A stretch of DNA of 35,816 bases from Pseudomonadota bacterium. GTDB lineage: Bacteria > Pseudomonadota > Gammaproteobacteria > Steroidobacterales > Steroidobacteraceae. The notes under the pieces are model-generated. The model saw only the letters and a program-made list of their open reading frames with translations, did no database searches and was not told the DNA's origin. Location of the stretch: NCBI GenBank assembly GCA_021797465.1, contig JAJZZR010000488.1, positions 1 to 35,816 on the forward strand, read 5' to 3'. Below, one piece after another: positions 1-27,324 of this stretch (position 1 is its first letter; every line of letters begins with the position of its first letter). A program made the translations under genes and the position numbers.

Positions 1-302
1 GATGCGCTATACCCCGAAAATCGCGGGGACGAGAGGACTGATGTACAGGTGCAGGATTTGAGTGTTGATGCGCTATACCCCGAAAATCGCGGGGACGAGA
101 GGTTTTCCTCACCACGCGCGGCCTGAAAAGCCCGATGCGCTATACCCCGAAAATCACGGGGACGAGAGGATCCGCGGACGGTGCCGGTGCGTTGCGCGTG
201 ATGCGCTATACCCCGAAAATCGCGGGGACGAGAGGCCCGAGTCCGAGCACCGGAGGATCAGCGTGTGATGCGCTATACCCCGAAAATCGCGGGGACGGAA
301 GG
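1..302 (+). CRISPR. CRISPR array 1 (36-nt repeat, at least 5 copies)
   Basis: Five direct repeats start at 1, 67, 134, 200 and 267. Each is 36 nt, beginning GATGCGCTATACCCCG and ending CGGGGACGAGAGG, and they are separated by four unrelated spacers of 30-31 nt. A short stem CCCCG/CGGGG with loop AAAATCG is followed by an 8-nt tail ACGAGAGG, the expected 5' handle of a Cas6-cut crRNA. Copy 3 has one loop change (TCA for TCG) that leaves the stem intact. Copy 5 ends ACGGAAGG, the tail of arrays 2 and 3. The array is cut by the window edge, so its leader probably lies to the left. It sits just upstream of the type IV cas operon. Confidence 0.95.
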
Positions 303-329
303 ATCTGGCGGAGGGCTGACCTGATGCCC

Positions 330-353
330 GTTCCCGCCCATGCGCGGGGGGCG
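330..353 (+). repeat. possible degenerate terminal CRISPR repeat
   Basis: This stretch lies 27 nt after the last clear repeat of array 1. It reads GTTCCCGCCCATGCG followed by CGGGGGGCG and resembles the array 2/3 repeat (GTT, C-rich arm, CATGCG, G-rich arm, CG) more than the array 1 repeat. It can form a CCCGC/GCGGG stem. It may be a decayed terminal repeat or chance similarity. Confidence 0.3.
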
Positions 354-357
354 TGAT

Positions 358-387
358 AACCGGGGCATCTCGCCCCGGTTTTTTTTA
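358..387 (+). terminator. intrinsic terminator after array 1
   Basis: A perfect 9-bp hairpin, AACCGGGGC / GCCCCGGTT with a 5-nt loop, is followed by a run of T. It ends the array 1 transcript before the csf promoter region. Confidence 0.9.
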
Positions 388-493
388 TTTCTTGGAGCCT
401 GAACGCTTCAGCTTGTGTGCGGTGAGGGCGGACCGCATTTTGGAAGTTTCTCCATATAACTCCAAGGAGCTCTAGCGATTTACCGACTCAATT

Positions 494-517
494 TCCGAGT
501 AATTCGTCGGATAAAAT
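494..517 (+). promoter_or_regulatory. palindromic operator upstream of the csf operon
   Basis: TCCGAGTAATTCGTCGGA is an imperfect copy of the palindrome found perfectly at 10981 and 26608 (TCCGACGAATCGTCGGA). It is directly followed by TAAAAT, a possible -10 box, as at 10998. It is probably the binding site of a shared regulator. Confidence 0.6.
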
Positions 518-540
518 TTCTGGCGTCACGGCCCACTTTG

Positions 541-560
541 CCTATAGTATGAAACCATAC
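541..560 (+). promoter_or_regulatory. csf operon proximal promoter and inverted repeat
   Basis: CCTATAGT gives a near-consensus -10 (TATAGT) and carries the CTATAG core seen before many genes in this window. It overlaps the inverted repeat GTATG-AAAC-CATAC at 547-560, a possible operator at the transcription start. No good -35 is visible. Confidence 0.45.
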
Positions 561-583
561 AGGCTTGTTTCTGGAGTTGAGCG

Positions 584-1243
584 TTGACCCCAATAGAGTT
601 CGCATACCAGCATTTCGGCCGGCACATCGCCCCCGAAAACCCAACGGCCTGGCTCTATCAGCCCGGTCTGCTCCTGCAGGACGGCCCGCGCCGCGCCGCG
701 GGGACCCGCAATGCAGGCATGGGCGGGACTATCGTGTGGATCGGTGAGTCCTGCGTGAAGGTCTACGGGCCGGATTATCGGGATAAAGGCTACCCCGCGA
801 GCGGAGACTCCAAGGAGGGACGAGTCTTTGTCACCAACATGTGCCTCAAAGTGCCCGATGAGCCCTGGATTGCTGTGATTTTCGGCAAACCGGGCGCGGA
901 TCCGGCCAAGCTCGTGCTGAACGGCGTAGGTTGCTCGACCGTCGCGTATTACGACACGAAGCTCGGGGTGCGCTGGTTCGAGCCGAAAGCGCTCGCGCGG
1001 GCCGCTGCCGGCTTCGATGGGCTCAGCGTGAGCGAGGCTATGGATACGATTCGTATCGTCGAGGCACAGCGAGCCGTGAGGCTCTATTCGTACGAAGTGG
1101 CGCCGCATGACCTTGTGCGCCTGGAGAAAATCCGTGCGAAGTGCCCGACGGCTGTGCGCGCAGCAGGAACGTTCCTGCGGGCCGGGACGATGCGCGCCGG
1201 ATTGCTCTCCTCTTATCTCAAAGAGATCCGTCGTGGTTCATGA
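584..1243 (+). CDS. csf1: Csf1-like (Cas8-like) subunit of type IV-A complex
   Basis: A 219-aa protein, first gene of the type IV operon. The start is TTG at 584, with GGAG at 572-575 as ribosome binding site. The call rests on position (next to cas6, csf3, csf2 and dinG) and on a length in the usual Csf1 range. In the family Csf1 is the small Cas8-like subunit of the crRNA complex. Csf1 proteins often carry a CxxC zinc-finger-like pair, but none is visible here: the cysteines are scattered (for example in ESCVKV and NMCLKV). The protein is either a divergent Csf1 or a replacement subunit. Its end overlaps the next gene by 11 nt, so translation is probably coupled. Confidence 0.6.
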   Translation: MTPIEFAYQHFGRHIAPENPTAWLYQPGLLLQDGPRRAAGTRNAGMGGTIVWIGESCVKVYGPDYRDKGYPASGDSKEGRVFVTNMCLKVPDEPWIAVIFGKPGADPAKLVLNGVGCSTVAYYDTKLGVRWFEPKALARAAAGFDGLSVSEAMDTIRIVEAQRAVRLYSYEVAPHDLVRLEKIRAKCPTAVRAAGTFLRAGTMRAGLLSSYLKEIRRGS

Positions 1244-1781
1244 GACTGTGATCAAACTCGAGTCAGTGCCGAAGACTCTCTACGAGCTGCACCATCGGGT
1301 GTGGCGGATGCTCGCGCGCTCGAGCGAGGAGCCGCGGGATTTTCTCTACGCCCTCGATCACGATCGCGGTGAGCTCTATGTGCGTGCCGGTAGCGCTCGT
1401 GAGGGACTCGGACCGTGGCGGGAACTCGAGCCGCTCGTCGAAGGCCGCAGGTACGTCGCAGTTGGAGCGCTCGTGCTCGATGCCACGCGTACGCGGGTGC
1501 GAGGCCAGCAGGCCCTCGGCTGGCGCCATCCGCTGGTGCTCGAGCGACGCGTGCGTCCGATGTTCGAGCGGTTCATGCGTCTCGAATCTCTCTCGATCTC
1601 ACCGGCGCGCGCCGAACCCTTCGGCAAAAACACGGGCCAGGATATCTATTTCACTCCGCTGCGAGTGCGCGCCAAAGGGACCGTGATTGATGCTGAGGCC
1701 GCCAACACTGTGCTTCAGCAGGGTATCGGCCGCGCGCGGGCCTTCGGGTTCGGAGCGCTGCATTTTATTTCAGAGGACTGA
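1233..1781 (+). CDS. Cas6e-like crRNA endoribonuclease (Csf5 position)
   Basis: A 182-aa protein from GTG 1233, inside the csf1 end, preceded by AAAGAGAT. Upstream in-frame codons lie within csf1 and are not used. Near the N terminus YELHHRVWRML (about residues 17-27) matches the Cas6e segment that carries the catalytic Tyr and His. Near the C terminus GIGRARAFGFGALHF is the glycine-rich loop that grips the repeat hairpin. Such enzymes cut pre-crRNA at the 3' base of the stem and often stay bound to the crRNA. It is shorter than the second Cas6e at 6059. Being nearest to array 1, it may process the 36-nt repeats. It could equally be named csf5 by position. Confidence 0.75.
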   Translation: MVHETVIKLESVPKTLYELHHRVWRMLARSSEEPRDFLYALDHDRGELYVRAGSAREGLGPWRELEPLVEGRRYVAVGALVLDATRTRVRGQQALGWRHPLVLERRVRPMFERFMRLESLSISPARAEPFGKNTGQDIYFTPLRVRAKGTVIDAEAANTVLQQGIGRARAFGFGALHFISED

Positions 1782-1788
1782 GGCTCCC

Positions 1789-2520
1789 ATGACCGAGGCA
1801 TTTCGCGTTACCGCAGAACTTTCGACGCCGCTGATCCTCTCCGGCGATACCTATCTCACCCTCGATGCGCTGCTCAGCGGCGTGCTGTTCGAGGAGACCG
1901 GTAGCGTCGAGCGGGCGCTTACCGAGATTCCACTCGAGCGCACTTACGGGGTGTGGCACGGCTCGAGCGTCTTTCTGGACTCTTGCGCGATTCGTACCAC
2001 CGAGCCGTTCAAGTCCGGGCTATCGATGCGCGATATCGACGCCGGGGCGCTCGAGCGCCTGGCGCTGGGTAGAGTCAGCCGCGGCGCGCGGCGCGGCGAG
2101 ACCGCACAGATCGATACGGTTCGCGGCGCGTACCAGTCGTCACTCGAGTGCTACAGCGCCTACCGCACACCGCGAGTGTACTGGTACGGCTACGGTCGGA
2201 TCGATGCGGCCGAAGAGCTGCTCAGCTGTTTACCTGCGATCGGCAAGAAGCGCCGGCAGGGCTACGGGCAGGTCGCGCATCTCGAGATCGAGCCGATCGA
2301 TGAGGATCTCTCGCTCTCGCGGATCGTCGCCGGCGAGCGCGTCGCGATGCGGCCGATCCCGCTCGAGGACTGGCAGCATCTCTACCCCGACGCCCCTGCA
2401 TCTTCGATCGGGTGCACGCGGCCAGCACCGCCGTACTTTGAGGGTGAGGCGCTCCTGTGTGCGATCCCGCCGGCGCGGGAAGTGTTTTGGAGCAAGCACG
2501 ACAAACGGTTTGTTTTTTAG
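1789..2520 (+). CDS. csf3: Csf3, Cas5-family subunit of type IV complex
   Basis: A 243-aa protein starting at ATG 1789, eight nt after the cas6 stop. Csf3 is the Cas5-like RAMP protein that binds the crRNA 5' handle. Supporting features are the N-terminal RRM-like strand FRVTAELSTPLIL followed by LDALLSGVLFE, the conserved FKSGLSMRDIDAGAL segment (about 74-88), and the Gly/basic loop AIGKKRRQGYG (about 150-160) typical of RAMP proteins. The gene order (cas6, csf3, csf2, dinG) keeps it next to Cas7. The length fits the family. Confidence 0.85.
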   Translation: MTEAFRVTAELSTPLILSGDTYLTLDALLSGVLFEETGSVERALTEIPLERTYGVWHGSSVFLDSCAIRTTEPFKSGLSMRDIDAGALERLALGRVSRGARRGETAQIDTVRGAYQSSLECYSAYRTPRVYWYGYGRIDAAEELLSCLPAIGKKRRQGYGQVAHLEIEPIDEDLSLSRIVAGERVAMRPIPLEDWQHLYPDAPASSIGCTRPAPPYFEGEALLCAIPPAREVFWSKHDKRFVF

Positions 2521-2567
2521 CGCAGACCCTGCGCGATCTTCATTCATCACAATCGAGGTTATCCGTC

Positions 2568-3677
2568 ATGCGTAAAGTCATCGTTCTTAAGGGCGAAATC
2601 GTCGCCGAACAGCCAATCTCATACAGCGTCCCCGGCGCCCCGAAGGGCGCCGACCACAAGCTGCCGCGCCTCGGCAGACAGCTCTACCTCACTGCGTCCG
2701 GACTGCGCGGAGTGCTGCGACACGCGGCGACTGAGATCGTCATGGACATGATCGATGCCGATCAGGCGCGCGCGAAACTCTCGCTCGATGACTACTTCCT
2801 GCTCGCTATGGGCGGGGTGAAGGATGCGAAAAACCCGGCGCAGAAGAAAAAGAACGGCAAGTCCGCAGAGCCGAGCGACGAGAGCGCCGAGGGCGATGAC
2901 GCGGAGAAGACGACCGTGTCGGAGGCGGATATCGTGCGTATGGTGCGCGCGAATCGGTTTGCGCGGACTCGCAATCCCCTGGTGTGCCTGTTCGGCTCGA
3001 TGCGCCACGGCGTGAGCGGCTCGCTTTACTGCGCGCATGCGATCGCGCCGGAGTCGACCGATTCCACCCGCGTGCGTCACGTTCGCGCAAACGACTTCCA
3101 GCGCGATCCGAGTGTGTTCGACCGGCTCGAGAGCAGCGTGCTCGATTCGTTCATCGCGCGCCAGGCTGATGCGGCCGTCCGGTCCGAGGGCAACAAGCGG
3201 ATCAAGGCTCTCGAACAGGAGCAGAAGAAGTTGCGACGCGGGGACAATACCGCGCGGCTGAAAGAGATCGAGGCGGAGCTCGATGAGATCAAGGCCTCGC
3301 TGCCTTCCGACGTGCAACTCCAGCTGCCGAACATCACCTACGATGCCATCCCCGCAGGCACTGTGTTCGCGCACGAGTTTACGCTCTCTAACCCGACGGA
3401 TGCGGAAGTGGCCCTGTTTTTGCGCGCGCTCGATCGGTTCGCGCTGAACCCGCTGATCGGCGGTCACCGCGCACACGGCCTCGGCCGGGTGAGCGGGCAC
3501 TGGAGCGTGCGGATGCGACCGGCCGGCGAGCGCGAGTTCGTCGATATGGGCGAGGTGGCGTTCGCTGGTGATTTCACAGGATTGAAGCTCACCGGTCGTA
3601 TCGCTGAGTTCTTCGCGAGCTGGGATGCGCAGAAAGATGCGCTCGATTTCACCGAGGCCGGGATCGCCGCGGCGTGA
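2568..3677 (+). CDS. csf2: Csf2, Cas7-family backbone subunit of type IV complex
   Basis: A 369-aa protein from ATG 2568, with GAGGT at 2555. Csf2 forms the helical backbone along the crRNA spacer. LTASGLRGVLRHAATE (about 41-56) is the conserved RAMP entry segment, and LIGGHRAHGLGRVSG (about 296-310) is the glycine-rich motif. Two inserted parts stand out: a low-complexity Lys/Ser/Glu linker at about 86-118 and a charged, coiled-coil-like segment at about 206-246. The linker may be disordered. The helical part could be an enlarged thumb contacting helicase or DNA, which is inference. Confidence 0.87.
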   Translation: MRKVIVLKGEIVAEQPISYSVPGAPKGADHKLPRLGRQLYLTASGLRGVLRHAATEIVMDMIDADQARAKLSLDDYFLLAMGGVKDAKNPAQKKKNGKSAEPSDESAEGDDAEKTTVSEADIVRMVRANRFARTRNPLVCLFGSMRHGVSGSLYCAHAIAPESTDSTRVRHVRANDFQRDPSVFDRLESSVLDSFIARQADAAVRSEGNKRIKALEQEQKKLRRGDNTARLKEIEAELDEIKASLPSDVQLQLPNITYDAIPAGTVFAHEFTLSNPTDAEVALFLRALDRFALNPLIGGHRAHGLGRVSGHWSVRMRPAGEREFVDMGEVAFAGDFTGLKLTGRIAEFFASWDAQKDALDFTEAGIAAA

Positions 3678-3732
3678 CCGCGGATGAGTTTCCAGGACCC
3701 GAAGACCGAATGGATCTCGATAGGAGTCTGTC

Positions 3733-6009
3733 ATGTCTAAGTTGATCGCGTCTGAGGTTATCGTGGCCCACGGCCGTGCGGTTGGACTGCGGCGCAACGC
3801 TGTGCAGGGTGAGTATGCAGATTACGTCCAGCGCGGCATCGCTGCGGCACGCAAGGAGGGCTACGGTCAGTTGCTGGTCGAGGCCGAAACCGGTACCGGC
3901 AAGACGCTCGGCTATCTCGTGGCGGCCGGGCTCGACTGTGCGCGCAACAATTCGCGCGCAATCGTGGCTACGCATACCGTTGCGCTGCAGCGACAGATCC
4001 TGCGCTTCGAGCAAAGCGGCCGCATCTGCCCGGAATGCGACATGTCCCGGGCGCTCACGATCATCAAGTCGGCCACCGGCAAGCAGCTCACCGCGGGCCT
4101 GCGGCTCGGGATGCGAAATTTCCTCGATACTGACAGAGCGCTGCGGGCCGCAGAACGCGTGCTCGGCGCACGCGGCGTGAAGCGCGAAGTGCGCGCGCAG
4201 GCCGAATCGTTCGCGGATTGGGCGCGGCTCAACCCCGGAGCTCAGATCCAGTCGTTTCTCGAGGAGGAGGGGCTCGCGGCTCTGCCCGGAGGGCTGCTGT
4301 TCGAGGATGTGTGCGTTACGGGCGCGTCGCGCAAGAGCGAGGTGTCTTATCTGAAGTACCTCGAGCACGTCGCCGCGTCCAAGCGTGCCGATATCCTGGT
4401 GACCAACCACGCGATGCTGATGACGAACTCGGTGCGCGGGCGCAACCGACTGCTGCACGCCGAGGACGATGACCGTGAGGTGTGCGCGCTGATCATCGAC
4501 GAATGCGACCGGTTCGAGCAGGCCGCGCGCTCGGCGACGAGCGACCTGGTGCCGATCCTGCCGATCGCGCAAGCACTGGCGGACTTAGCAGGATCGCACG
4601 CGGGCAAGAAGATCGAGAACGCGCAGGCGGCGGTGGAGAAACTGCGCGCGATGCTGTCCGATCTTCGCGAGCACGAAGACGATGAGCGCGAGGAAGAAGT
4701 CCAGTTCTGGGACGAACTCGAACCTCCTGTCAGGCTGCGCGTGCTCAAACAGCTCACCGCCGCCTACGAAGCATTGGTCCCGTTGACCGACGTCAAGAAG
4801 AGCGCAGATGAAGCGCTGGAGTCGATCCAGAGCTATACCGAAGCGCTCGGCAACGTCATCGGGCGGATCGGCAAAACCTCCGCGGATACCTCGAGCGATG
4901 GGGTTGTGGCCTTGCGGTGGTCGCCGACCCGCCACTACCCCTCCATTCGCACGTTCCGGCTGCGGCCCGCGCGCTTGCTGAAGCGCATGTGGGATGTGTG
5001 GGTGAGCGGAGATGGCGAGGAACAGGAGGAGGATCCGTGCCGGGCGAAGGCGCTCGTGCTCACATCGGCTACGGTCGGAATGCCTTCAGAGAACGGCCGG
5101 GTGAACTTCACCGAGATGGCCACGGTGTACGGAGTCTATGGAGAGCGTAACGCCTGCCATGCGCTGAACGCCTCGGGCGAGGGCCAGTTCGCACCGCCGA
5201 GATTCGGCGCAGTCGAATTCGTGTTCTCGCACCCCAGCGCCCCGCCGGTGTACCTCTCCGAAGAGGAGGCAGATGAGGGGCATCGAGAGCTGAACCCACA
5301 GTGGGTGCAGTACACGGTCAAAGGGATCCTGGCCGCACACGCGCGCGGCGGGCGTACGCTGGTGCTCACGAACTCGTACCGGGCTACCGAGGCGATTTGC
5401 GACGCGCTGCGCAAGGCCAAAGGTGCGATCAAGCCTATCGAGAAGACCGCAAGCACGAATCAAGAGATGTGCATACGAGCGTTCGTGTCCGATCCTAATG
5501 GCGTGTTCGTCTCACCTGGCGCTTGGGAGGGATTTGACATCAGCCAGCGCATCGGCCCTGACGGAAAGAAACTCGGCAACGCGATCAAGCATGTGGTGGT
5601 CACCCAGGTCCCATTCGCCGCGCCGGACGGCCCGTTCGGCAAAGCGCTCGATCGTCACCTGCGCCGGCGAGGATACAGCGAGTCTCAAGCGCGCGGACTG
5701 CAGTTCAATCAGCTCTTTGCCGAGGCGGTCCGCAAGTTCAAACAGGGCTTCGGCCGCGGGATCCGCGGGGCTCAGGACAGCTTCACGTTCTGGATCACCG
5801 ACCCGCGCTTCCCGCGCTCTGAGCTCGCCGGAATGCTGCGGACCTCTGGCAATACGCAGCGGGTCGAGACGAAGTTGAGACTCGCGATCCCGAAGCGCTT
5901 TCGCGTTTCTGTTGACGGGGATTCGCCCTGGGACTGCGGTAGCGTTCTGATGCTCGACGGCACAGTGCTCGACGCGGACACACTCGCGGAAAAAGCCGAC
6001 GCTGCGTGA
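3733..6009 (+). CDS. csf4: CasDinG (Csf4), SF2 5'-3' helicase of type IV-A
   Basis: A 758-aa protein starting at ATG 3733, with TAGGAG at 3721. It is a DinG/XPD-type superfamily 2 helicase. Motif I is ETGTGKT (about 52-58), motif II is IIDECD (about 254-259, DECD in place of DEAH), motif V region GVFVSPGAWEGFDI, and motif VI QGFGRGIRG (about 670-678). The FeS domain of true DinG/XPD needs four cysteines; here only CPEC (about 98-101) is obvious, so an FeS cluster is unlikely, as known for CasDinG. In type IV-A the helicase is recruited by the crRNA complex and is needed for interference against plasmids. Its presence, rather than a RecD-like helicase, points to IV-A. Confidence 0.92.
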   Translation: MSKLIASEVIVAHGRAVGLRRNAVQGEYADYVQRGIAAARKEGYGQLLVEAETGTGKTLGYLVAAGLDCARNNSRAIVATHTVALQRQILRFEQSGRICPECDMSRALTIIKSATGKQLTAGLRLGMRNFLDTDRALRAAERVLGARGVKREVRAQAESFADWARLNPGAQIQSFLEEEGLAALPGGLLFEDVCVTGASRKSEVSYLKYLEHVAASKRADILVTNHAMLMTNSVRGRNRLLHAEDDDREVCALIIDECDRFEQAARSATSDLVPILPIAQALADLAGSHAGKKIENAQAAVEKLRAMLSDLREHEDDEREEEVQFWDELEPPVRLRVLKQLTAAYEALVPLTDVKKSADEALESIQSYTEALGNVIGRIGKTSADTSSDGVVALRWSPTRHYPSIRTFRLRPARLLKRMWDVWVSGDGEEQEEDPCRAKALVLTSATVGMPSENGRVNFTEMATVYGVYGERNACHALNASGEGQFAPPRFGAVEFVFSHPSAPPVYLSEEEADEGHRELNPQWVQYTVKGILAAHARGGRTLVLTNSYRATEAICDALRKAKGAIKPIEKTASTNQEMCIRAFVSDPNGVFVSPGAWEGFDISQRIGPDGKKLGNAIKHVVVTQVPFAAPDGPFGKALDRHLRRRGYSESQARGLQFNQLFAEAVRKFKQGFGRGIRGAQDSFTFWITDPRFPRSELAGMLRTSGNTQRVETKLRLAIPKRFRVSVDGDSPWDCGSVLMLDGTVLDADTLAEKADAA

Positions 6010-6058
6010 GCATGAGTGACAACGTTGCTGGATTTGAACAGAACCGCAGGAGTTAGTC

Positions 6059-6742
6059 ATGCTGGCTACATCTGAACTTTGCGCGGTGCATGGCCGAAAT
6101 GCGCTTCACTCGATTTCGGCTGCTCCCGAGCGGGCACAGGCGGCCGCACCTGTGTATCTATCCACTTTAACTCTTTCCCCGTCGCATCTGGCCGCGGCGC
6201 GCGATTTGGCGAGTCCGTACGAACTGCACCGCACTTTGGCGCGTGTTTTTGGCGATGCCAAGCCCGGAGCAGACCGCTTCCTGTGGCGACAGGAGGACCG
6301 CACGATACTCGTGCAATCAACGACGCGGGGTGACTGGGAGACGCTCGAGGAAGGCTATTGCGAGGCTCTCGAGACGGATCGAGCGAGAGCGCTTGCGGAC
6401 GTGACGGCGCCCGACGCGCGTTGGGGGTTTCGTCTGAGTGCAAACCCGACGGTGCGCCGCGGCGGCCAGCGCGTCGGGATCGCGCGTCCCTATGAGGCGC
6501 TTCTGTGGCTGCATCGGCAGGGGCTCAGCGGCGGCTTTAGGATCGAGCATGCTTCAATGCAGAAGATCGAACGGCTCGAGATCCACAATGCGCGTACCCA
6601 GGCGCGCATGCGGTTCATCCGGGCGTCTTTCGAGGGGGTCCTTACTGTGCGCGATAACGAACTATTCGGCGCGGCGCTCGCGCGCGGGCTCGGACACGGC
6701 AAATCCTTCGGGATGGGGCTGGTCGTGCTGACGCCGGTTTGA
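6059..6742 (+). CDS. cas6e: Cas6e crRNA endoribonuclease (second copy)
   Basis: A 227-aa protein from ATG 6059 with a clear CAGGAG site. It is a Cas6e/Cse3-type RAMP: VYLSTLTLSP (first strand, about 32-41), SPYELHRTLARVF (about 52-64) with the Tyr/His of the active site, and ARGLGHGKSFGMGLVVL at the C terminus, which matches the Cas6e glycine loop. About 30 residues precede the first strand. It lies between dinG and array 2, whose repeat (CCCCAC/GTGGGG stem, 8-nt tail ACGGAAGG) has the shape of type I-E repeats, so it very likely matures arrays 2 and 3. No cas3 or Cascade genes are nearby, so this is not a type I-E locus. Confidence 0.9.
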   Translation: MLATSELCAVHGRNALHSISAAPERAQAAAPVYLSTLTLSPSHLAAARDLASPYELHRTLARVFGDAKPGADRFLWRQEDRTILVQSTTRGDWETLEEGYCEALETDRARALADVTAPDARWGFRLSANPTVRRGGQRVGIARPYEALLWLHRQGLSGGFRIEHASMQKIERLEIHNARTQARMRFIRASFEGVLTVRDNELFGAALARGLGHGKSFGMGLVVLTPV

Positions 6743-6929
6743 GACGAGGAGGGACGGGCGCGTCGTGAGATTGTTGCCCATAAAAGAGCGGCGGTCGTTT
6801 CTCTTCGTTGGCGCGGCCCAGGGCGGAGGGGCTTTGCGCGCATTGATATGGGCGGAAATCGAGCGTGAAATTGGCGACGGCGGCGCGCTTATGATGTGGC
6901 GAGCGCCCGCGAGCAGGAGGGCGCCGAGG
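6743..6929 (+). other. leader region of CRISPR array 2
   Basis: A 187-nt stretch between cas6e and the first repeat. It contains no credible ORF, no TCCGACGA palindrome and no clear -35/-10 pair. Array 2 may be transcribed from the cas operon, from this leader, or both. Confidence 0.5.
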
Positions 6930-7148
6930 GTTTTCCCCACATACGTGGGGACGGAAGGGGGTGGCGGTTAGAGACGATCGAAGGTTTCGAGGGTTTTCCC
7001 CACATGCGTGGGGACGGAAGGGCAGCGAGCCGTGATTGACCCGGTGCGCATTGAGTTTTCCCCACATGCGTGGGGACGGAAGGGAAGGTGGGTACGTATC
7101 GTCATCGGACACTATCCACAGTTTTCCCCACATGCGTGGGGACGGAAG
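6930..7148 (+). CRISPR. CRISPR array 2 (28/29-nt repeat, 4 copies)
   Basis: Repeats start at 6930, 6993, 7055 and 7121. Each begins GTTTTCCCCACATGCG and continues TGGGGACGGAAG(G); the first has ATACG for ATGCG. The three spacers are long and uneven (about 34, 33 and 37 nt). The stem CCCCAC/GTGGGG with loop ATGC and the tail ACGGAAGG mirror type I-E repeats. The repeat is the same as array 3 and different from array 1. Confidence 0.96.
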
Positions 7149-7194: not shown

Positions 7195-7224
7195 AGCCCC
7201 GGGGACCCCCTCGGGGCTTTTTAT
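7195..7224 (+). terminator. intrinsic terminator after array 2
   Basis: Arms AGCCCCG / CGGGGCT are followed by a T run. It ends the cas6e/array 2 transcript. Confidence 0.85.
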
Positions 7225-8421: not shown

Positions 8422-8454
8422 CGCCCCGCCGATTATGTCAATCCTTCATACAAC

Positions 8455-8484
8455 GCCGCGGGGAATTCCCTCGCGGCTTTTTTA
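8455..8484 (+). terminator. intrinsic terminator
   Basis: Arms GCCGCG / CGCGGC enclose a GGGAATTCCC palindrome and are followed by TTTTTT. Confidence 0.85.
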
Positions 8485-8507
8485 TCCTGCCCGCCGCCGG
8501 CCCGATT

Positions 8508-8530
8508 CGCTATAGACCAGCAGGTCACTA
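8508..8530 (+). promoter_or_regulatory. dispersed promoter/operator element
   Basis: CGCTATAGACC followed by AGCAGGTCACTA, 16 nt before ATG 8547 and upstream of its AAAGGAGG ribosome binding site. Confidence 0.65.
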
Positions 8531-8546
8531 GCAAAAGGAGGGCTCG

Positions 8547-9599
8547 ATGAGCTCGACAATCGTGACGAACCGGCTCGCGGCCGTGTTCGACAATCCGCGC
8601 AATCGCGGCGATCACATCTGGTTTCTGTTCGAGAAATGCTACGAGAGCAACGTCTACCCGCACACGCCGCGCTGGTGCGCGCGCTCGATCGGGCGGATCC
8701 GCGAGGCGATGCAGATGATCGTCATGGACGCCTCGTACTGCGAAGGCGGGATGCTGCGGGACCGCAAGGGCTCGATCACCCCGGAGACCTATATCCGGCG
8801 CTGGTACCGGGCGATGCGCCATCCGGTGCAGATGCCGCAGATGCACATTCGGCTCAAGCGCGAGGACCTGCGCTGCCAGTTCCGCATGACGAGCGATCCG
8901 ACGGACGATCAACGCTGGGAGGACTTCTGCGCAAGGATGCGCGAGCACGGTCGGAAGGATATTCCCCTCGCGCTCGATGCTGACAAGGAAGTGACGCTCT
9001 CGCTGCACGAGGACATCGAACTCGTGCTGGCGGTGTACGGCACGAGCCGCGAGCGCAAGACGTTGCTCGCCCCGTGGAAAGCGTTCGGCGGGGAGTGGGC
9101 CCCGGAGCGATCTCCGAGGGCCACGATCGGCTATTACCCGCCTGGCGGGCAGATTCCCTCGCCGGTGATCCCGCGCGCGTATCGGATCGACGATAACGCG
9201 CTTGTGATGCTCGATGAGGGGAAGTGGCGGGCGGCCGGCTGGGCCTACAGCGCGGTCGGGGACTACGTGAGAGGCCTCTGGGAGACGGAGCTTCACGCCC
9301 CGGGCAGCTTCGAGGTGCTAATCCCTCCGTACCGCGAGGCGATCATGGCCGCGCCGCTGCTGCCGAAGGGTAGCGAGGCAGTGGTGGATCTCATGAGCTG
9401 CCGGCGGCCCGAGGGCGTGCTCGAGACGGCCGTGCTCACCGGCGGGCGCATCGAGACGGACCCTGAAAGCGGCAACAAACGGGCGCGGCTGCCCTGGTCG
9501 ATCGAGACCGGGCACAAGCTCGCCTACCTGCCGCATGCGGCCACCACGTGGCACCTGCCCGAGGTGGTCGCTACGGACGCGATGAAGCTTTGCGCATGA
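8547..9599 (+). CDS. hypothetical protein, 350 aa
   Basis: ATG 8547 is preceded by AAAAGGAGGG. The protein is soluble, rich in charged and aromatic residues, with no visible membrane segment. No known motif was recognised. Its stop overlaps the start of the macro-domain gene (ATGA at 9596), so the two are translationally coupled and may work together. Pairing with an ADP-ribose-processing macro domain raises the possibility of a role in ADP-ribosylation or NAD chemistry, but no DarT-like or other ADP-ribosyltransferase motif could be identified. Confidence 0.7.
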   Translation: MSSTIVTNRLAAVFDNPRNRGDHIWFLFEKCYESNVYPHTPRWCARSIGRIREAMQMIVMDASYCEGGMLRDRKGSITPETYIRRWYRAMRHPVQMPQMHIRLKREDLRCQFRMTSDPTDDQRWEDFCARMREHGRKDIPLALDADKEVTLSLHEDIELVLAVYGTSRERKTLLAPWKAFGGEWAPERSPRATIGYYPPGGQIPSPVIPRAYRIDDNALVMLDEGKWRAAGWAYSAVGDYVRGLWETELHAPGSFEVLIPPYREAIMAAPLLPKGSEAVVDLMSCRRPEGVLETAVLTGGRIETDPESGNKRARLPWSIETGHKLAYLPHAATTWHLPEVVATDAMKLCA

Positions 9600-11088: not shown

Positions 11089-11688
11089 TTGCTGCTGCTG
11101 ATCGACCAAGACAATGTGCTTGCCGACTTTACCCGGGTGATCTACACCGAGATGTGCGCGCGCGGACACAGGGAGCGCGTCCTGGCGCCGGCCAAACAGA
11201 CGACCTATCCGCTAGAAGATCACTATCCCGCCGATCTGCTCGGAGAGCTGAGGGCGATCTATACCGCCGAGGGGTTCTTCCGCAGCCTGCCTCCGATCGA
11301 TGGCGCGATCCAGGCGGTCAAGGAAATGGTCGCCCATGGGATCGACGTGCGCATCTGCACGCACCCGCTCCAGGCCTATCGAAACTGCGTCGGTGAGAAG
11401 TACGAGTGGGTCGAGCGGCATCTGGGGGCCGCGTTCACTACACGGATGATTCTCACCCGCGACAAGACTGTCATCGCCGGCGACATGCTGATCGACGACA
11501 ATCCGAATATCACTGGATCACGTGATCCGTCCTGGTTGCACGTCGTGTTCGATCAGCCGTACAACCGCGCGGTAGCGGGTCCGCGCCTCAAGGGCTGGGC
11601 TGACTGGCGCGCAGTGATCGAGCCCATGTACGCTGGCGGCCGGCGCGGCATTGGTTCGACTCGCGAGGTTGTCGGAGCCGGATTTTGA
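11089..11688 (+). CDS. HAD-family 5'(3')-deoxyribonucleotidase
   Basis: A 199-aa protein from TTG 11089, with GGGAGCGAG before it. LLLIDQDNVLADF is HAD motif I (DxDxVxxDF, as in NT5C-type 5'-nucleotidases). ICTHPLQ occupies the motif II region, TRDKTVIAGDMLIDDNP gives the motif III Lys and the acidic motif IV (DMLIDDNP). Such enzymes dephosphorylate deoxynucleoside monophosphates and are common on phage and plasmid genomes, where they tune dNTP pools. It precedes thyA by about 1.1 kb. The end overlaps the next start (TTGA). Confidence 0.85.
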   Translation: MLLLIDQDNVLADFTRVIYTEMCARGHRERVLAPAKQTTYPLEDHYPADLLGELRAIYTAEGFFRSLPPIDGAIQAVKEMVAHGIDVRICTHPLQAYRNCVGEKYEWVERHLGAAFTTRMILTRDKTVIAGDMLIDDNPNITGSRDPSWLHVVFDQPYNRAVAGPRLKGWADWRAVIEPMYAGGRRGIGSTREVVGAGF

Positions 11689-11975
11689 ACCCGGTCGGCA
11701 CATCGCACGCGCTGGTGTTGATCGCTCTTCTTCCGGCTGGTCTCGTGTTGGCGGTCCGATTCTTTGCCGAGCGGACCGCTCGAGGGGCTGTCGCGGTCGA
11801 TGCCGTGCTGGTCGCGGTGGCCGCGTGGATTCTGTGGAACGCGGGATCTCGTGCGAAGACGGTCCACGAACTTCTCGGATATGCTGCGATCCTGGCCGCG
11901 ACGGTGCTTACGCTCGCTGTGAGATGGTTGCGGGCGCGCGATGTCTCTGGCTCCAATCGGACCGATGAGCCATGA
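11685..11975 (+). CDS. small membrane protein, 96 aa
   Basis: TTG 11685 overlaps the nucleotidase stop (TTGA). Three hydrophobic segments are visible: SHALVLIALLPAGLVLAV (about 7-24), GAVAVDAVLVAVAAWILW (about 34-51) and LLGYAAILAATVLTLAV (about 63-79). Basic residues follow the third. It is probably a three-helix inner-membrane protein of unknown function. Its 3' end overlaps the next gene (ATGA). Confidence 0.65.
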   Translation: MNPVGTSHALVLIALLPAGLVLAVRFFAERTARGAVAVDAVLVAVAAWILWNAGSRAKTVHELLGYAAILAATVLTLAVRWLRARDVSGSNRTDEP

Positions 11976-12520
11976 GCGGCCGTATGCGGGTGGTGTTCGA
12001 TGACGGCGGCCGCGCGGCGGCCGGATTCGCCGGGCGCGCCGGGGACTGCGTCACGCGCTCGATTGCAATTGCGACTGGCCTGCCCTACCTCGAGGTGTAC
12101 GAGGCGCTCTCGGCGGGTTGCCGCGAGCAACGCGTAACGAAGCGCAGCCGGCGGCGCGCAAGCGCTCGAAGCGGAGTCGATACCCGTCGCAAGTGGTTTC
12201 GCGACTATATGGCGAGTCTGGGGTTCCAGTGGGTGCCGACGATGCGCATCGGAAGCGGCTGTCAGGTTCATCTCGTCGACGGAGAGCTGCCCGCCGGGCG
12301 GCTCATCGTTGCACTCAGCAAGCATTATACCGCCGTCATCGACGGGGTAATCCACGACACGCACGATCCGCAGCGCGAAGTCCACTGTATCGCACCGAAT
12401 CGCGGCCAGGCCCTCAGGGCCGGCGAGTGGATAAACGCGAACGGGGTGTGCTCGATCAGCCGCCGGTGCGTGTACGGATACTGGGTGGTCAGGGGAGATC
12501 CATGCGACGCAGCAGCTTAG
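11972..12520 (+). CDS. papain-like cysteine peptidase-fold protein
   Basis: A 182-aa protein starting at ATG 11972 in an ATGA overlap. GRAGDCVTRSIAIATGLPY (about 21-39) places a Cys at the start of a helix, as in C39/NlpC-like proteins of phages and plasmids. HYTAVIDGVIHDTHDP (about 112-127) supplies the His and Asp. A basic stretch (KRSRRRASARSGVDTRRK) lies between. Cys-His-Asp peptidase or related activity is inferred. The substrate is unknown. Confidence 0.6.
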   Translation: MSGRMRVVFDDGGRAAAGFAGRAGDCVTRSIAIATGLPYLEVYEALSAGCREQRVTKRSRRRASARSGVDTRRKWFRDYMASLGFQWVPTMRIGSGCQVHLVDGELPAGRLIVALSKHYTAVIDGVIHDTHDPQREVHCIAPNRGQALRAGEWINANGVCSISRRCVYGYWVVRGDPCDAAA

Positions 12521-12832: not shown

Positions 12833-13831
12833 ATGCGACAGTATCTCGATACTCTGAGACTCGTGCTCGAGGAGGGCACGTGGCTCGAAAGCCGCACCGG
12901 CATCCGGCGGATCAGCTTCCCCGGAGTGTCCATGCGGTTCGATCTGACGAAAGGGTTCCCGGCCGTCACGACCCGAAAGCTGGCCTTCAAGACCGCGATC
13001 GGGGAGCTGTGCGGATTCCTCGCCGGCGCGACCAGCGCGAGGGCTTTCCGGGAGAACGGCTCGAAAATCTGGGACGCGAATGCGAACGAGAACCAGGCGT
13101 GGCTCGAAAATCCCTATCGTGCCGGCGAGGACGATCTCGGCCCCATCTACGGGGCGCAGTGGCGCGGCTGGAATGCGTACAAGGTGCTCAAGGTGAGCGA
13201 TCGGGCGAAGGTGGCCGATGCGGTACGCCGGGGCTACAAGAGTCTCGCGTACTTCGATAACCACGATCAGGTGGCCATCGATGGCGAACCGCACGAGGCC
13301 GTTGGGCTCTTTCACCGCAAGATCGATCAGCTGCGCGAGTGTCTCGACACGATCATGTCCAACCCGGACGATCGACGCATTCTCTTTCACGCGTGGAACC
13401 CGGCCGAGCTCGATGAGATGGCGTTGCCGCCGTGTCATCTGCTCTATCAGTTCCTGCCGAACCCGGCGAAGCGCGAGCTCTCGATGAGCTTATACATTCG
13501 CTCGAATGATCTGGGCCTCGGGGCCCCCTTCAATATCTGCGAAGGCGCCGCGCTGCTCTCGCTCGCAGCTCGTCTCACTGGGTACACGGCCCGCTGGCTC
13601 GTGTACTTCGTCGGCGATGCGCACCTCTACGAGAACCAGCTCGACATGGTCGAGGAGATGTTGAAGCGCGAGCCGTATCCCTCGCCGCGCCTCGTGATCG
13701 ATCCTCGGGTACCCGAGTACCGAACCACAGGGGTCTACGCTCCCGAGTGGCTCGATCAGGTGCAGCCGAGCGACTTTCGGCTCGAGGGCTACCGGCACCA
13801 TGCGCCGCTCACAGCGGCGATGGCGGTATAG
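12833..13831 (+). CDS. thyA: thymidylate synthase
   Basis: A 332-aa protein from ATG 12833. It converts dUMP to dTMP using methylene-tetrahydrofolate. The catalytic Cys201 lies in [11 protein letters not shown]. The phosphate/nucleotide segment [19 protein letters not shown] keeps the Asn that selects dUMP over dCMP, so a dCMP hydroxymethylase is less likely. [12 protein letters not shown] holds the conserved His and Tyr. It is longer than a typical ThyA (about 264 aa); extra sequence falls mainly in the middle (about 118-165). Mobile-element thyA genes usually support rapid replication. Confidence 0.93.
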
Positions 13832-14247: not shown

Positions 14248-14270
14248 CCCTATAGACCTGCAGGTCATTA
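14248..14270 (+). promoter_or_regulatory. dispersed promoter/operator element, most symmetric copy
   Basis: CCCTATAGACC followed by TGCAGGTCATTA. GACCTGCAGGTC is a perfect 12-bp palindrome directly downstream of the CTATAG core. It lies 22 nt upstream of the TTG start of the methylase-helicase gene. Confidence 0.7.
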
Positions 14271-14292
14271 ATAAGGGTCATAGGAGAGTGCA

Positions 14293-17200
14293 TTGCAGAT
14301 ATCTCAGTCTGTACGGAAGGGGTCATCCGCGGCGGATATGTGGCTGCCCGGATTCGGCCCCGATGAAGATCCGCTGCAGAGCCTCGGTTTGGGAGATCGA
14401 GCGGATACCGTGCCGGTCATGGCTTCGGCGGCGCTCGAGCGGGACACCCCGCGCAGCGTCTGGGAGCGGCTCGATCGGGCGGTCTTCTCCGGGCTCGCCG
14501 GCGAGGTGACGAAGTACCAAGCAAATCTGAAGGCCATCGCTCTCGTGCGCGAGCTCGAGGCGGCCGGCCGCATACCGACGGCGGACGAGCGTCGCACGCT
14601 CAACCGCTATACCGGCTGGGGAGGACTCCCCGGCGCGTTCAACGAAGAGCAATCTGATCCGGCCTGGGCGGCCCGTGCGCGAGAGCTGCGCGAGCTGCTC
14701 GGCGATGCGGAGTACGTCTCGGCGAAGGACAGCACCCCGAACGCGCACTACACGTCCCTCGAGGTCATCGAGGCGATGTGGTCCATGGTGCATCGCTTGG
14801 GGTTTCGAGGCGGAAGGATCCTCGAGCCGGCGGCGGGCGTTGGGTATTTCCTCGGTGGCATGCCGACGGAGATTGCCCAGCACTCGCAGATCACCGCGGT
14901 CGAGCTCGATCGGCTCTCGGCACGGATGCTGAAGGCGCTCTACGGCGCTCACGGGGTGACCGTCACCCAGGGGGCGTTCGAGCAGGTGCGCTTGCCCGAG
15001 GGGTTCTTCGATCTTGCGATCGGCAACGTCCCTTTCGGTAACTACAAGGTCGCCGAGATGAGAAACGTCGCGTATCAGGACTTCCTGATCCACGACTATT
15101 TCTTCGCCAAGGCGATAGAGCTGGTCAGGCCAGGCGGGCTCGTCGTGTTCATCACGTCCTCCGGGACGCTCGATAAGCAAGACGAGCGGGTACGGGAGTA
15201 CCTCGCCTCCAAAGCGACTCTCGTGGCGGCCACGCGGTTGCCTGAGAGCACGTTCCAGGCGATCGCCAACACGCGCGTCACCACCGACATCGTGATTCTG
15301 CAACGGCCGCTTGCGGCCCGAGAGCCTTCATCCCCCTGGATGGAGCTCGCGCAGATCCCGAAGGACTCCCCGCTCTACGGGGAAGAGTCGCACTTCTACT
15401 ACCCCCAGGAATGGAGGATGCGCGCGAACGAGTACTTCGTTCAGCATCATCCGGACCGGGTGATCGGCAAGCTTCAGCTCGTCGATAACGGGTACGACAA
15501 GTCGGTCGGGTGCGTGTTCGAGGGTGACCTCGAGGCGGCGCTCGCCGGCCAGGTCGGCACACTTCCCGCGGGACGTTATGCCGCGCGCGAGGCAGTGAAG
15601 ACCGAGTCGGCGCGCGTGAGGTGCGATCTTGCTCCCGGGGATAACCGTCTCGGCTTTCGCGTCGTGGACGGGCAGCTCTTCGAGTGCGATGGCGAGAAGC
15701 TCGTCGCGGTCGATGCCCCGGCGGCGAAGCTCGCGCGCATCGAGGGCCTGGTGGGAATTCGCGATGCGGCCCGTGCGCTCGTGGAGGCCCAACCGGTCAC
15801 CGAGTGCGATGCGGACCTCGTGCCGCTGCGTGAGCGGTTGAACAGTCTCTACGATGCGTTCGTCGAGAAGTTCGGCTGCATCAGCGGCAAGGCCAATCGT
15901 GCGGTGTTCCGTGAGGATGCGGACTGGCCGCTGCTGCTGTCGCTCGAGGCCGTCGATGAGGAGAAGGGCACCGTCGAGAAGGCGGATCTCTTCACCCGGC
16001 GCACGGTGGGCGCGGCCATGCGGCTCGAGAGCGCTGACAGCGCGAACGAAGCGCTACTCGCATCGCTTGCCGAATTCGGCAGGATCGATGAGATGCGGCT
16101 CGGGGAGCTGCTCGGCAAACCCGGAGGTGATGTTCTTCGCGAACTCGAGGAGTGCAGGGCAGTGTTCCGCGACCCGGCAACGGGGCTATGGGAGACCGCC
16201 GATGCGTACCTCTCGGGAGACGTGAGGGAGAAGCTGGCCGTAGCGAGAGCGGCGGGGAGCGAATATCTGGGTAACGTCGCGGCGCTCGAGACCGTGATTC
16301 CCCCGGACCTGGCCCCCCACGAGATCGGTGCGCGGATCGGCTCGACCTGGATCCCGACGAGCGACTACGAAGCGTTTCTCGATGAAACCTTCGCAGGCGG
16401 CACAGGGAACGGGGTCACCTTCAGCGCCGTGGCCGGTGCCTGGGATGTGAATCCCAGCTGGAGCGCGGAGCGCTCTGTGGCGGCGACTCAGACCTACGGG
16501 ACAAGCCGGGTGAATGCGCTCACGCTCTTTGCGCAGGCGCTGAACCAGCAAGTTCCGACGGTCTACGACACCGACCCGCACGACCGCGACAAGCGGATCG
16601 TGAATCAGGCCGAGACGCTGACCGCGCGGGAGAAGCAGCAGGAGCTCAAGGCGAAGTTCGTCGAGTGGCTGTGGTCGGATGAGGCGCGTGCGCTTCGCCT
16701 GACTCGCATCTACAACGACGGGTTCAACAATCGGGTCGAACGCAAGTACGACGGGTCACACCTCGTGCTGCCGGGCTTCTCGAATTGCGTGACCTTGGGC
16801 GCACACCAGCGTAACGCCATCTGGCGCACGGTGGTGTCAGGGAGGAACACGCTGCTGGCACACGCGGTGGGGGCGGGAAAGACTTACGAGATGGTCTGCG
16901 CGGGCATGGAGCTGCGCCGACTGGGCAAGGCGAGGAAGCCCTGCCATGTCGTTCCGAACCACATCCTCGAGCAGTACACCGCGGAGTTCCTGCGCGCCTA
17001 CCCGGGCGCAAAGGTGCTGATGGCCACGAAGGAGGATCTCGCAGGAGATCGGCGCCGGACACTGCTCTCGCGGATCGCCACGGGGGACTGGGATGCGGTG
17101 ATCATCACCCACTCGTCCTTCGAGCGCATTCCGCTGAGTCAGGCGTACATGGAGCGGTTCATCGGGGAGGAACTCGAGCGGATCGAGGATGCTCTGAGGC

Positions 17201-26746: not shown

Positions 26747-27324
26747 GTTTTCCCCACATGCGTGGGGACGGAAGGATGACCGGCGCAAGAGCCAGGCCGC
26801 CGTAGGACGTTTTCCCCACATGCGTGGGGACGGAAGGTGACGAAGGCCGTAGGTTACGTGACGCCCGAAGTTTTCCCCACATGCGTGGGGACGGAAGGAG
26901 GACGGATCGATGCATCTCTTTGAGACGTAGTTTTCCCCACATGCGTGGGGACGGAAGTTTGTAGATGATGTATGCCTGTACGCCGTACACGTTTTCCCCA
27001 CATACGTGGGGACGGAAGAGGCGCTACAAGCTCGCTGTCAGTGACGCCGCGGTTTTCCCCACATGCGTGGGGACGGAAGGTCATTGCGCTCAGTCGCGTC
27101 CTCGGCGGTGAAGTTTTCCCCACATGCGTGGGGACGGAAGTGATCAACGAGAATCTTCGCGCGACCCGCGCCACGTTTTCCCCACATGCGTGGGGACGGA
27201 AGGAGCATCAGCAGGCTGAGCGGCCCGGCTTCGGCGTTTTCCCCACATGCGTGGGGACGGAAGGATTTGGCGCTGGCGTCGAGCTGGCCTGATGCCGTTT
27301 TCCCCACATGCGTGGGGACGGAAG
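26747..27324 (+). CRISPR. CRISPR array 3 (28/29-nt repeat, 10 copies)
   Basis: Repeats start at 26747, 26809, 26870, 26930, 26991, 27052, 27113, 27175, 27236 and 27297, giving nine spacers of about 31-34 nt. The repeat begins GTTTTCCCCACATGCG and ends TGGGGACGGAAG; base 29 is usually G but T or A in copies 4, 5 and 7, so it may come from the protospacer side. Copy 5 has ATACG. It is the same repeat as array 2 and is about 20 kb away from the cas genes. All spacers differ. The regular spacing and conservation suggest an active, well-maintained array. Confidence 0.97.

What the first reader, a model, noticed from the sequence alone, without database searches (positions are those of the whole stretch)
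1..7148. One type IV-A effector with two Cas6e-like nucleases and two repeat families
The locus has a single csf1/csf3/csf2/dinG set but two Cas6e-like genes (1233 and 6059). Both keep the YxLH active-site segment and the C-terminal Gly loop. Each lies next to a different array: array 1 with 36-nt repeats (stem CCCCG/CGGGG, tail ACGAGAGG), arrays 2/3 with 28/29-nt repeats (stem CCCCAC/GTGGGG, tail ACGGAAGG). Type IV loci normally carry one Cas6. This looks like two crRNA-maturation channels feeding one complex, possibly a merger of two systems.
Basis: partly seen in the sequence, partly recalled or inferred. Interest (0 to 1): 0.9.

Follow-up and report, generated by a model that had tools for sequence, protein, structure and literature searches.

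The report
CRISPR locus with two repeat-cutting enzymes
A mobile element in an uncultured gammaproteobacterium carries one plasmid-fighting CRISPR complex but two guide-RNA cutters of different ancestry, each beside its own kind of repeat, which suggests that it plugged a foreign guide-making module into its own weapon.

Summary
One apparent operon (window 584-6742) encodes a type IV-A effector (Csf3, Csf2, CasDinG, plus an unrecognised protein in the csf1 position) and two intact Cas6 nucleases of different origin. Cas6-A (1233) groups with type IV-A Cas6 proteins and is the only Cas6 seen at the matching loci of two same-genus relatives. Cas6-B (6059) groups with type I-E Cas6e; no relative was found in 98 other related genomes. 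Array 1 (36-nt repeats) is of the native kind. Arrays 2 and 3 (28/29-nt) have an I-E-type stem, but their 5' handle ACGGAAGG departs from the Thermus/Deinococcus I-E handle at three positions, each time to the base found in array 1. One spacer of each array matches genes of conjugative elements in the same genus: RecD2-type helicase (32/34), coupling protein (32/33) and, weaker, coupling protein (27/31). Best reading: a captured Cas6e with I-E-like arrays supplies extra guides to the resident IV-A effector. This is a new variant of a known kind, resting on one metagenome-assembled contig. None of ten comparator type IV loci showed two Cas6 genes. Which Cas6 cuts which repeat, and loading into one complex, are inferred.

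The parts
1..302 (+). Array 1: five 36-nt repeats, four spacers of 30-31 nt, cut by the contig start; native-type repeat, handle ACGAGAGG (last copy ACGGAAGG)
584..1243 (+). P0001, 219 aa, in the csf1 position; no Csf1 profile match; TTG start
1233..1781 (+). Cas6-A (P0002), native type IV-A Cas6, 182 aa, Y17/H20, Gly loop from G164; GTG start
1789..2520 (+). csf3 (Cas5-type subunit)
   Evidence: PDLC01727 E 4.9e-42; TIGR03116 58 bits, below its cut-off of 140
2568..3677 (+). csf2 (Cas7-type backbone)
   Evidence: PDLC01724 E 1.2e-44; TIGR03115 54.3 bits, below its cut-off of 130
3733..6009 (+). dinG/csf4 (CasDinG helicase), no HNH domain found
   Evidence: PDLC01729 E 7.9e-113; TIGR03117 117.9 bits, below its cut-off of 400; Pfam
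6059..6742 (+). Cas6-B (P0006), captured type I-E Cas6e, 227 aa, Y54/H57, Gly loop from G210; 49 nt after dinG
6930..7148 (+). Array 2: four 28/29-nt I-E-like repeats, three spacers; handle ACGGAAGG
7195..7218 (+). Terminator-like stem-loop after array 2
   Evidence: consensus scan only: 1 found, 0.5 expected in shuffles
26747..27324 (+). Array 3: ten repeats of the array-2 kind, nine spacers of 32-34 nt

Best explanation
A conjugative element carries a native type IV-A system (P0001, Cas6-A, Csf3, Csf2, CasDinG, 36-nt array) and has captured a second crRNA-making module: a type I-E Cas6e (Cas6-B) with the I-E-like arrays 2 and 3. Cas6-A cuts array-1 transcripts and Cas6-B cuts array-2/3 transcripts, each at the base of its own hairpin. 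Both leave 8-nt 5' handles of similar design (ACGAGAGG and ACGGAAGG), so the one Csf3/Csf2 complex can load both and, with CasDinG, silence transfer and helicase genes of rival conjugative elements. Shown: gene content, intact catalytic residues, separate ancestry, repeat make-up, spacer matches. Inferred: that C447 belongs to a conjugative element, cognate cutting, cut sites (by analogy with Cas6e), loading into one complex, silencing. A further inference is that I-E-type repeats let the element gain spacers through type I-E Cas1-Cas2 of its hosts, as published for type IV-A3.
For: Tree: P0006 with I-E Cas6e and P0002 with IV-A Cas6, split at 100/99. Cas6-A stands alone at the matching loci of G003 and G013, and P0006 has no match in the other 98 of 99 genomes. 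G003 has a 36-nt-repeat array after dinG. Cas6-B lies 49 nt after dinG on the same strand with a ribosome-binding-like site. Array-2/3 repeats match I-E repeats over the first 21 nt (18 of 21 with Deinococcus, 16 of 21 with three others), and the handle differs from ATGGACCG at positions 2, 6 and 7, each to array 1's base. It equals the handle of the last array-1 copy. A2.2 matches a RecD2-type helicase gene on two contigs (32/34 each), A3.6 a coupling-protein gene (32/33), A1.4 a coupling-protein homologue (27/31); 320 shuffled spacers reached at most 73% on these contigs. IV-A structures show Cas5 holding the 7-8-nt tag (PMC11519345, passages).
Against: No RNA or protein data. One assembled contig. 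The handle case is thin: 6 of 8 positions shared with array 1 against 4-5 of 8 with four I-E handles and 5 of 8 with two other IV-A handles, and an ATGAACCG ancestor needs a fourth change that leads away from array 1. A1.4 is weak: E 6.4e-4 per genome over 99 genomes, no GC flank. Thirteen of 16 spacers have no convincing target on the contigs compared. The GC(G) flank at array-2/3 targets is not the PAM published for IV-A1/IV-A3. P0001 is not recognisable as Csf1, so the effector itself is partly unverified.
Confidence: 0.55

Rival explanations
1. Cas6-B and arrays 2/3 serve a type I-E Cascade encoded elsewhere (an unassembled part of this genome, or other hosts) and do not feed the type IV effector.
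For: Cas6-B and the repeat body are of I-E type. The assembly is 91.4% complete, and only Cas1, not Cas3 or Cse1-Cas7e, was searched for genome-wide.
Against: The assembly's two Cas1 matches lie in long frames read as Cas4-Cas1 fusions next to genes that I read, without a domain search, as type I-G. The handle has lost the I-E ending ACCG seen in 4 of 4 I-E comparators. Cas6-B is joined to the IV-A operon. Array-2/3 targets are conjugation or helicase genes, as is the array-1 target.
Confidence: 0.15
2. One Cas6 does all the cutting; the other is kept as a structural cap of the complex or is on its way out.
For: In IV-A1 the Cas6 caps the complex through contact with Cas7 (PMC11519345, passages). 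Both repeats share a C4/G4 stem core. P0002 is the more derived of the two against casE profiles.
Against: Both genes are full-length and keep the catalytic Tyr/His and Gly loop. The predicted hairpins differ in stem length and loop, 5 pairs with a 7-nt loop against 7 pairs with a 4-nt loop.
Confidence: 0.15
3. The second Cas6-repeat pair was kept because sister elements carry decoy array-1 repeats (RNA anti-CRISPRs) that titrate Cas6-A; a channel with another Cas6 and repeat escapes them.
For: C172 and G019:C380 carry array-1-type repeats away from any cas gene found on the stretches read, and spacer A2.2 from the second channel matches C172 at 32/34. Repeat-mimicking RNA anti-CRISPRs are described in PMC10651486 (abstract and passages).
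Against: C172 may belong to the window's own element (shared promoter-like motif), and its two repeats with a 58-nt spacer may be a mini-array or an assembly fault rather than a decoy.
Confidence: 0.07
4. The pairing is a product of misassembly or binning of unrelated DNA.
For: One MAG in 567 contigs with 5.25% contamination; no second genome shows the pairing; the contig starts inside a repeat.
Against: Cas6-B follows dinG by 49 nt on the same strand with total G+C like its neighbours, 0.639 against 0.627-0.646 (GC3 a little lower, 0.693 against 0.710-0.797). The array-2 repeat recurs 20 kb away on the same contig.
Confidence: 0.05

Closest known systems
Type IV-A3 systems of Klebsiella plasmids (NZ_LN824134.1 and kin)
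   Same: Csf2, Csf3 and DinG genes on conjugative plasmids, Cas6e-like Cas6, I-E-like repeat length and period; host Cas1-Cas2 fill in for missing adaptation genes (PMC11519345, passages)
   Different: one Cas6, other gene order, handle (G)TTATCGG, recognisable Csf1 with a Cys cluster
IV-A loci of JAJZDX010000008.1 (G003), DAIDHH010000084.1 (G013) and Sulfuricystis multivorans pSTJ2
   Same: gene order P0001 - cas6 - csf3 - csf2 - dinG; in pSTJ2 next to MobH/TraW/TraU genes
   Different: one Cas6, no Cas6-B; G013's contig ends inside dinG; only G003 showed an array on the stretches read
Type I-E Cas6e with I-E repeats (Thermus thermophilus, Deinococcus gobiensis, Ideonella, Edwardsiella plasmids)
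   Same: Cas6-B sequence and tree position; repeat stem, length and period
   Different: in these four records Cas6e lies in a full I-E operon and the handle is ATGRACCG; here it follows a IV-A operon and the handle is ACGGAAGG
Synechocystis PCC6803 with at least two Cas6 (PMC3575380; title and start of abstract in a search listing)
   Same: several Cas6-type processing routes in one cell
   Different: there the routes belong to separate CRISPR systems with their own effectors (recalled); here both Cas6 genes lie in one operon with one effector

Membership tests
Type IV-A CRISPR-Cas | Csf2 (Cas7) and Csf3 (Cas5) of type IV | tested here: met
   PADLOC E 1.2e-44 and 4.9e-42; NCBIfam TIGR03115/TIGR03116 match below their equivalog cut-offs
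Type IV-A CRISPR-Cas | CasDinG helicase (csf4) | tested here: met
   PADLOC Csf4_0_IVA E 7.9e-113; TIGR03117 117.9 bits, below its cut-off of 400
Type IV-A CRISPR-Cas | Csf1 (Cas8) | tested here: inconclusive
   a gene conserved in position and sequence in G003/G013, but 0 of 4 members match PADLOC, no similarity to enterobacterial Csf1 by hhalign, none in PDB
Type IV-A CRISPR-Cas | zinc-finger Cas8 as in known IV-A1/IV-A3 | tested here: not met
   cysteines of P0001 are not shared by its G003/G013 orthologues; a property of the solved complexes, not of every IV-A
Type IV-A CRISPR-Cas | no adaptation genes with the locus | tested here: met
   Cas1 in the assembly lies only on contigs C125 and C319, none on C447
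Type IV-A CRISPR-Cas | spacers against conjugative elements | tested here: met
   A2.2, A3.6 and weaker A1.4; 3 of 16 spacers
Cas6e / CasE equivalog (P0006) | TIGR01907 over cut-off, Tyr/His active site, Gly loop | tested here: met
   73.0 bits against 45.2; Y54/H57; alignment to 2y8w
Cas6e / CasE equivalog (P0002) | TIGR01907 over cut-off | tested here: not met
   38.7 against 45.2; it is a Cas6-superfamily protein of the IV-A branch
Csf5 (P0002) | arginine-based active site (PMC8175902, passages) | tested here: not met
   P0002 keeps the Tyr/His pair
Type I-E arrays (arrays 2/3) | 28/29-nt repeat with C4/G4 stem, period about 61 | tested here: met
   spacers of array 2 are longer (34-38 nt)
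Type I-E arrays (arrays 2/3) | handle ending ACCG as in the comparators | tested here: not met
   ACGGAAGG against ATGRACCG in 4 of 4 I-E loci read
Type I-E arrays (arrays 2/3) | type I-E effector and adaptation genes in the genome | tested here: inconclusive
   Cas1: only the two long-frame matches; Cas3, Cse1 and Cas7e not searched genome-wide
Cognate pairing (Cas6-A with array 1, Cas6-B with arrays 2/3) | each enzyme cuts its own repeat RNA | not testable with these tools
   needs biochemistry or small-RNA sequencing

The most novel reading that the evidence does not exclude
A type IV-A effector that reads two crRNA dialects: it captured a type I-E Cas6e with I-E-like arrays and retuned their 5' handle towards its own, gaining a second guide supply fed by host type I-E acquisition machinery and insensitive to repeat mimics aimed at the native Cas6. 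If so, crRNA maturation in class 1 systems is a swappable module, and the handle (read by Cas5) rather than the Cas6 decides which effector uses a guide.
Probability: 0.3. Interest if true: 0.82.

Novelty: new variant of a known kind. Interest (0 to 1): 0.62.

Why it matters
Type IV systems mostly lack adaptation genes, and how they gain new spacers is only partly understood. An element with two Cas6 enzymes of different ancestry and two repeat families around one effector makes it testable whether a type IV complex can accept guides matured by a foreign Cas6, what in the repeat (hairpin or handle) licenses loading, and whether such capture widens the range of hosts from which spacers can be taken.

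Tried and rejected
Ideas rejected or weakened. (1) Array 1 continuing on another contig with its own cas genes: the same repeat occurs on G000:C172, but that contig encodes TraU, TrbC and TraN, and none of the six window Cas queries hit its first 20,000 of 20,151 bases. (2) A host I-E system with the same repeats: array-2/3 repeats occur in 1 of 99 genomes (14 copies, all on this contig). (3) P0002 as Csf5, P0001 as a known Csf1: not supported. (4) A fold of P0006 without an alignment was poor (mean pLDDT 41.8) and was not used. P0002's model was moderate (72.6); its 18 matches with E up to 0.001 were Cse3/Cas6e or Cascade chains (best E 9.5e-6, TM-score 0.53).

Searches that gave little: csf2 (twice), dinG and Cas6-A queries in viral contigs, 4 of 4 scans without a confirmed relative; both repeat patterns in viral contigs, 0 hits each; csf2 in genome contigs, none confirmed with one protein and 3 loci with an alignment; csf2 in phages, none; joined spacers in plasmids, none, and in phages one match of 25 nt at 96% to two records of one phage (E 0.6), taken as chance; P0002 in plasmids, none; the C172 spacer in 60 genomes, 19 with a match at E up to 0.05 but none strong outside C172 itself. 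Csf2 or Csf3 searches, own genome counted: 3 of 99, 3 of 296 (one is G247, where I saw no IV-A operon on its 5.2-kb contig), 4 of 369, 2 of 398 (the second has the contig length of S. multivorans pSTJ2). The spacer search over 99 genomes gave a match at E up to 0.01 in 12 genomes: the window's own, G019, and 10 with partial matches of 22-28 nt; of these ten I read the flanks of six and did not follow the rest. Cas6 counts in comparator loci: 8 with one, L041 and L055 with none by my model. Paper searches for two Cas6 in type IV showed no such case in the rows listed (15 of 115 and 10 of 38); they cover open-licence PMC papers only. The 2025 classification paper holds no 'two Cas6'.
Full report
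What is there. The window is the whole contig C447 (35,816 bases) of a draft genome of 4.27 Mb in 567 contigs, 91.4% complete with 5.25% contamination. On the + strand one apparent operon runs P0001 (584-1243), cas6-A (1233-1781), csf3 (1789-2520), csf2 (2568-3677), dinG (3733-6009), cas6-B (6059-6742) and array 2 (6930-7148), followed by a terminator-like stem-loop at 7195-7218. Array 1 (1-302) lies upstream and is cut by the contig start. Array 3 (26747-27324) lies 20 kb downstream in the same orientation.

The proteins. PADLOC profiles give Csf3 (E 4.9e-42), Csf2 (1.2e-44) and type IV DinG (7.9e-113); the matching NCBIfam equivalogs are hit below their cut-offs, so this is a divergent IV-A. 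P0001 matches no profile in PADLOC, NCBIfam or Pfam. Orthologues in two same-genus genomes are clear, but 0 of 4 family members hit PADLOC, hhalign finds no similarity to enterobacterial Csf1, and its cysteines are not shared. It is Csf1 by position only. Published IV-A1 and IV-A3 Cas8 proteins read the PAM with a zinc-finger domain together with Cas5 (PMC11519345, passages), so PAM reading may differ here.

Two Cas6 proteins of different ancestry. P0006 is a full Cas6e: TIGR01907 73.0 bits against a cut-off of 45.2, best solved relative Thermus Cse3 at 100.9 bits. P0002 belongs to the same Pfam family (44.6 bits, cut-off 25) but fails the casE cut-off (38.7); its model (pLDDT 72.6) matches Cse3/Cas6e structures. 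Both keep Tyr and His of the YxLH segment and the C-terminal glycine loop. In a 14-row tree the four I-E proteins plus P0006 are split from the nine IV-A proteins, P0002 among them, with support 100/99. Inside the I-E branch P0006 groups with Thermus and Deinococcus (87/93). P0002 groups with five other IV-A Cas6 proteins (85/85, with long branches).

Which Cas6 is native. Relatives G003 and G013 have P0001-cas6-csf3-csf2-dinG with one Cas6, the orthologue of P0002. Contig lengths identify them with JAJZDX010000008.1 and DAIDHH010000084.1. G013's contig ends inside dinG, so its downstream side is unseen. A whole-genome search with P0006 found nothing in either, nor in any of the other 98 of 99 genomes. 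G003 carries a 36-nt-repeat array after dinG. The array-2/3 repeat was found only on the window contig (14 copies in 1 of 99 genomes). Array-1-type repeats occur on the window contig (5), on contig C172 of the same assembly (2) and, diverged, in G019. So Cas6-A with 36-nt repeats looks native, and Cas6-B with 29-nt repeats added.

The repeats. Predicted hairpins differ: CCCCG/CGGGG with a 7-nt loop for array 1 (z -1.1) and a 7-pair stem with a 4-nt loop for arrays 2/3 (z -2.7). The first 21 nt of the array-2/3 repeat are I-E-like: 18 of 21 agree with the Deinococcus I-E repeat and 16 of 21 with each of three others, against 12 of 21 with array 1. By analogy with Cas6e cutting after the stem, the handle is ACGGAAGG. 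It differs from the Thermus/Deinococcus handle ATGGACCG at positions 2, 6 and 7, each time carrying the base of array 1's ACGAGAGG, and it is identical to the handle of the last array-1 repeat. In IV-A structures this 7-8-nt tag is held by Cas5 (PMC11519345, passages). I read this as tuning of captured repeats to the resident effector. The sample is small: simple identity is 6 of 8 to array 1, 4-5 of 8 to the I-E handles and 5 of 8 to two other IV-A handles, and an ATGAACCG ancestor (the other two comparators) needs a fourth change, away from array 1.

What the guides aim at. All 16 spacers were compared with 99 related genomes and then with target contigs. A2.2 matches a RecD2-type helicase gene on C172 and on G019:C376, 32 of 34 each. 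A3.6 matches a TraD/TrwB coupling-protein gene on C70 of the same assembly, 32 of 33, near a MobA/L relaxase gene. A1.4 matches a coupling-protein homologue on G019:C445, 27 of 31 (genes), with E 6.4e-4 for one genome, so this one is only suggestive. The other 13 reach at most 21 matching positions on these contigs, and 320 shuffled spacers at most 73% identity. Flanks at the three array-2/3 sites read TGC|G, TGC|G and CGC|G; the array-1 site reads CCC. Each array thus has a spacer against transfer or helicase genes of conjugative elements, the usual type IV-A quarry (PMC11656645, passages), and arrays 1 and 3 both point at coupling proteins.

The element. C172 encodes TraU, TrbC, TraN and a coupling-protein-like ATPase. 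A promoter-like motif (TCSCTATAG...AGGT) occurs 7 times in the window (0.1 per mononucleotide shuffle), once on C172, twice on G019:C380, and not on 9 other stretches from 8 contigs, among them the A2.2 target contig G019:C376. G019:C380 also aligns to window 8454-8540 at 81%. This suggests one family of conjugative elements, and in S. multivorans a IV-A operon with the same gene order lies beside MobH, TraW and TraU genes. If C172 is part of the window's own element, spacer A2.2 is nearly self, with both mismatches within its first 8 nt.

Mechanism. Most likely Cas6-A and Cas6-B each mature their own transcripts and both kinds of crRNA enter one Csf3/Csf2 complex which, with CasDinG, silences rival elements. 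Gene content, catalytic residues, ancestry and spacer matches are shown; cutting specificity, complex sharing and silencing are inferred. A reason for the capture could be access to host type I-E acquisition, as published for IV-A3 (passages in PMC11519345 and PMC11656645). A more speculative reason is escape from repeat mimics of the kind described in PMC10651486 (abstract and passages).

Known or new. Reviews seen in passages describe Cas6, Csf5 or Cas6e as alternative enzymes of type IV-A loci (PMC8175902), and two Cas6 routes in one cell are known from Synechocystis (search listing). I found no report of two Cas6 genes of separate descent in one type IV operon in the rows listed, an open-licence library only. 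I therefore call it a new variant of a known kind.

Limits.

Noticed in passing
L038 (G000:C172) 13185-13314: Two array-1-type repeats lie between trbC and traN of a conjugation cluster with a 58-nt spacer, whose 3' 29 nt are identical to a stretch of traU on the same contig (L038 12020-12048). It could be a mini-array, an RNA decoy or an assembly fault.
   Followed up: partly
window 7857, 8507, 12792, 14247, 19289, 19887, 21965: A promoter-like motif TCSCTATAG...AGGY recurs on the + strand, in most cases shortly before an open reading frame; 0.1 expected per mononucleotide shuffle; also on C172 (1) and G019:C380 (2).
   Followed up: partly
window 584-1243: The protein in the csf1 position has no detectable similarity to known Csf1 and no conserved cysteines, so PAM reading in this IV-A branch may differ.
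   Followed up: partly
L036 (G019:C380) 79-312, minus strand: Three diverged array-1-like repeats in a same-genus genome, one of them inside what looks like the start of a coding sequence.
   Followed up: no
L058 (G000:C125), L059 (G000:C319): Two Cas1 genes in frames of about 600 aa, read as Cas4-Cas1 fusions of a type I-G-like system in the same assembly; the domains were not searched.
   Followed up: partly
L054 (G592:C4) about 9000-9257 and 14249-14980: A type IV-A-like locus with one detected Cas6 and two arrays of related but different repeats.
   Followed up: no
L041 (NZ_CP029091.1) 11492-12409: A type IV-A locus on a Pseudomonas paraeruginosa plasmid is annotated with an adjoining cas1f gene, while type IV loci mostly lack adaptation genes.
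   Followed up: no
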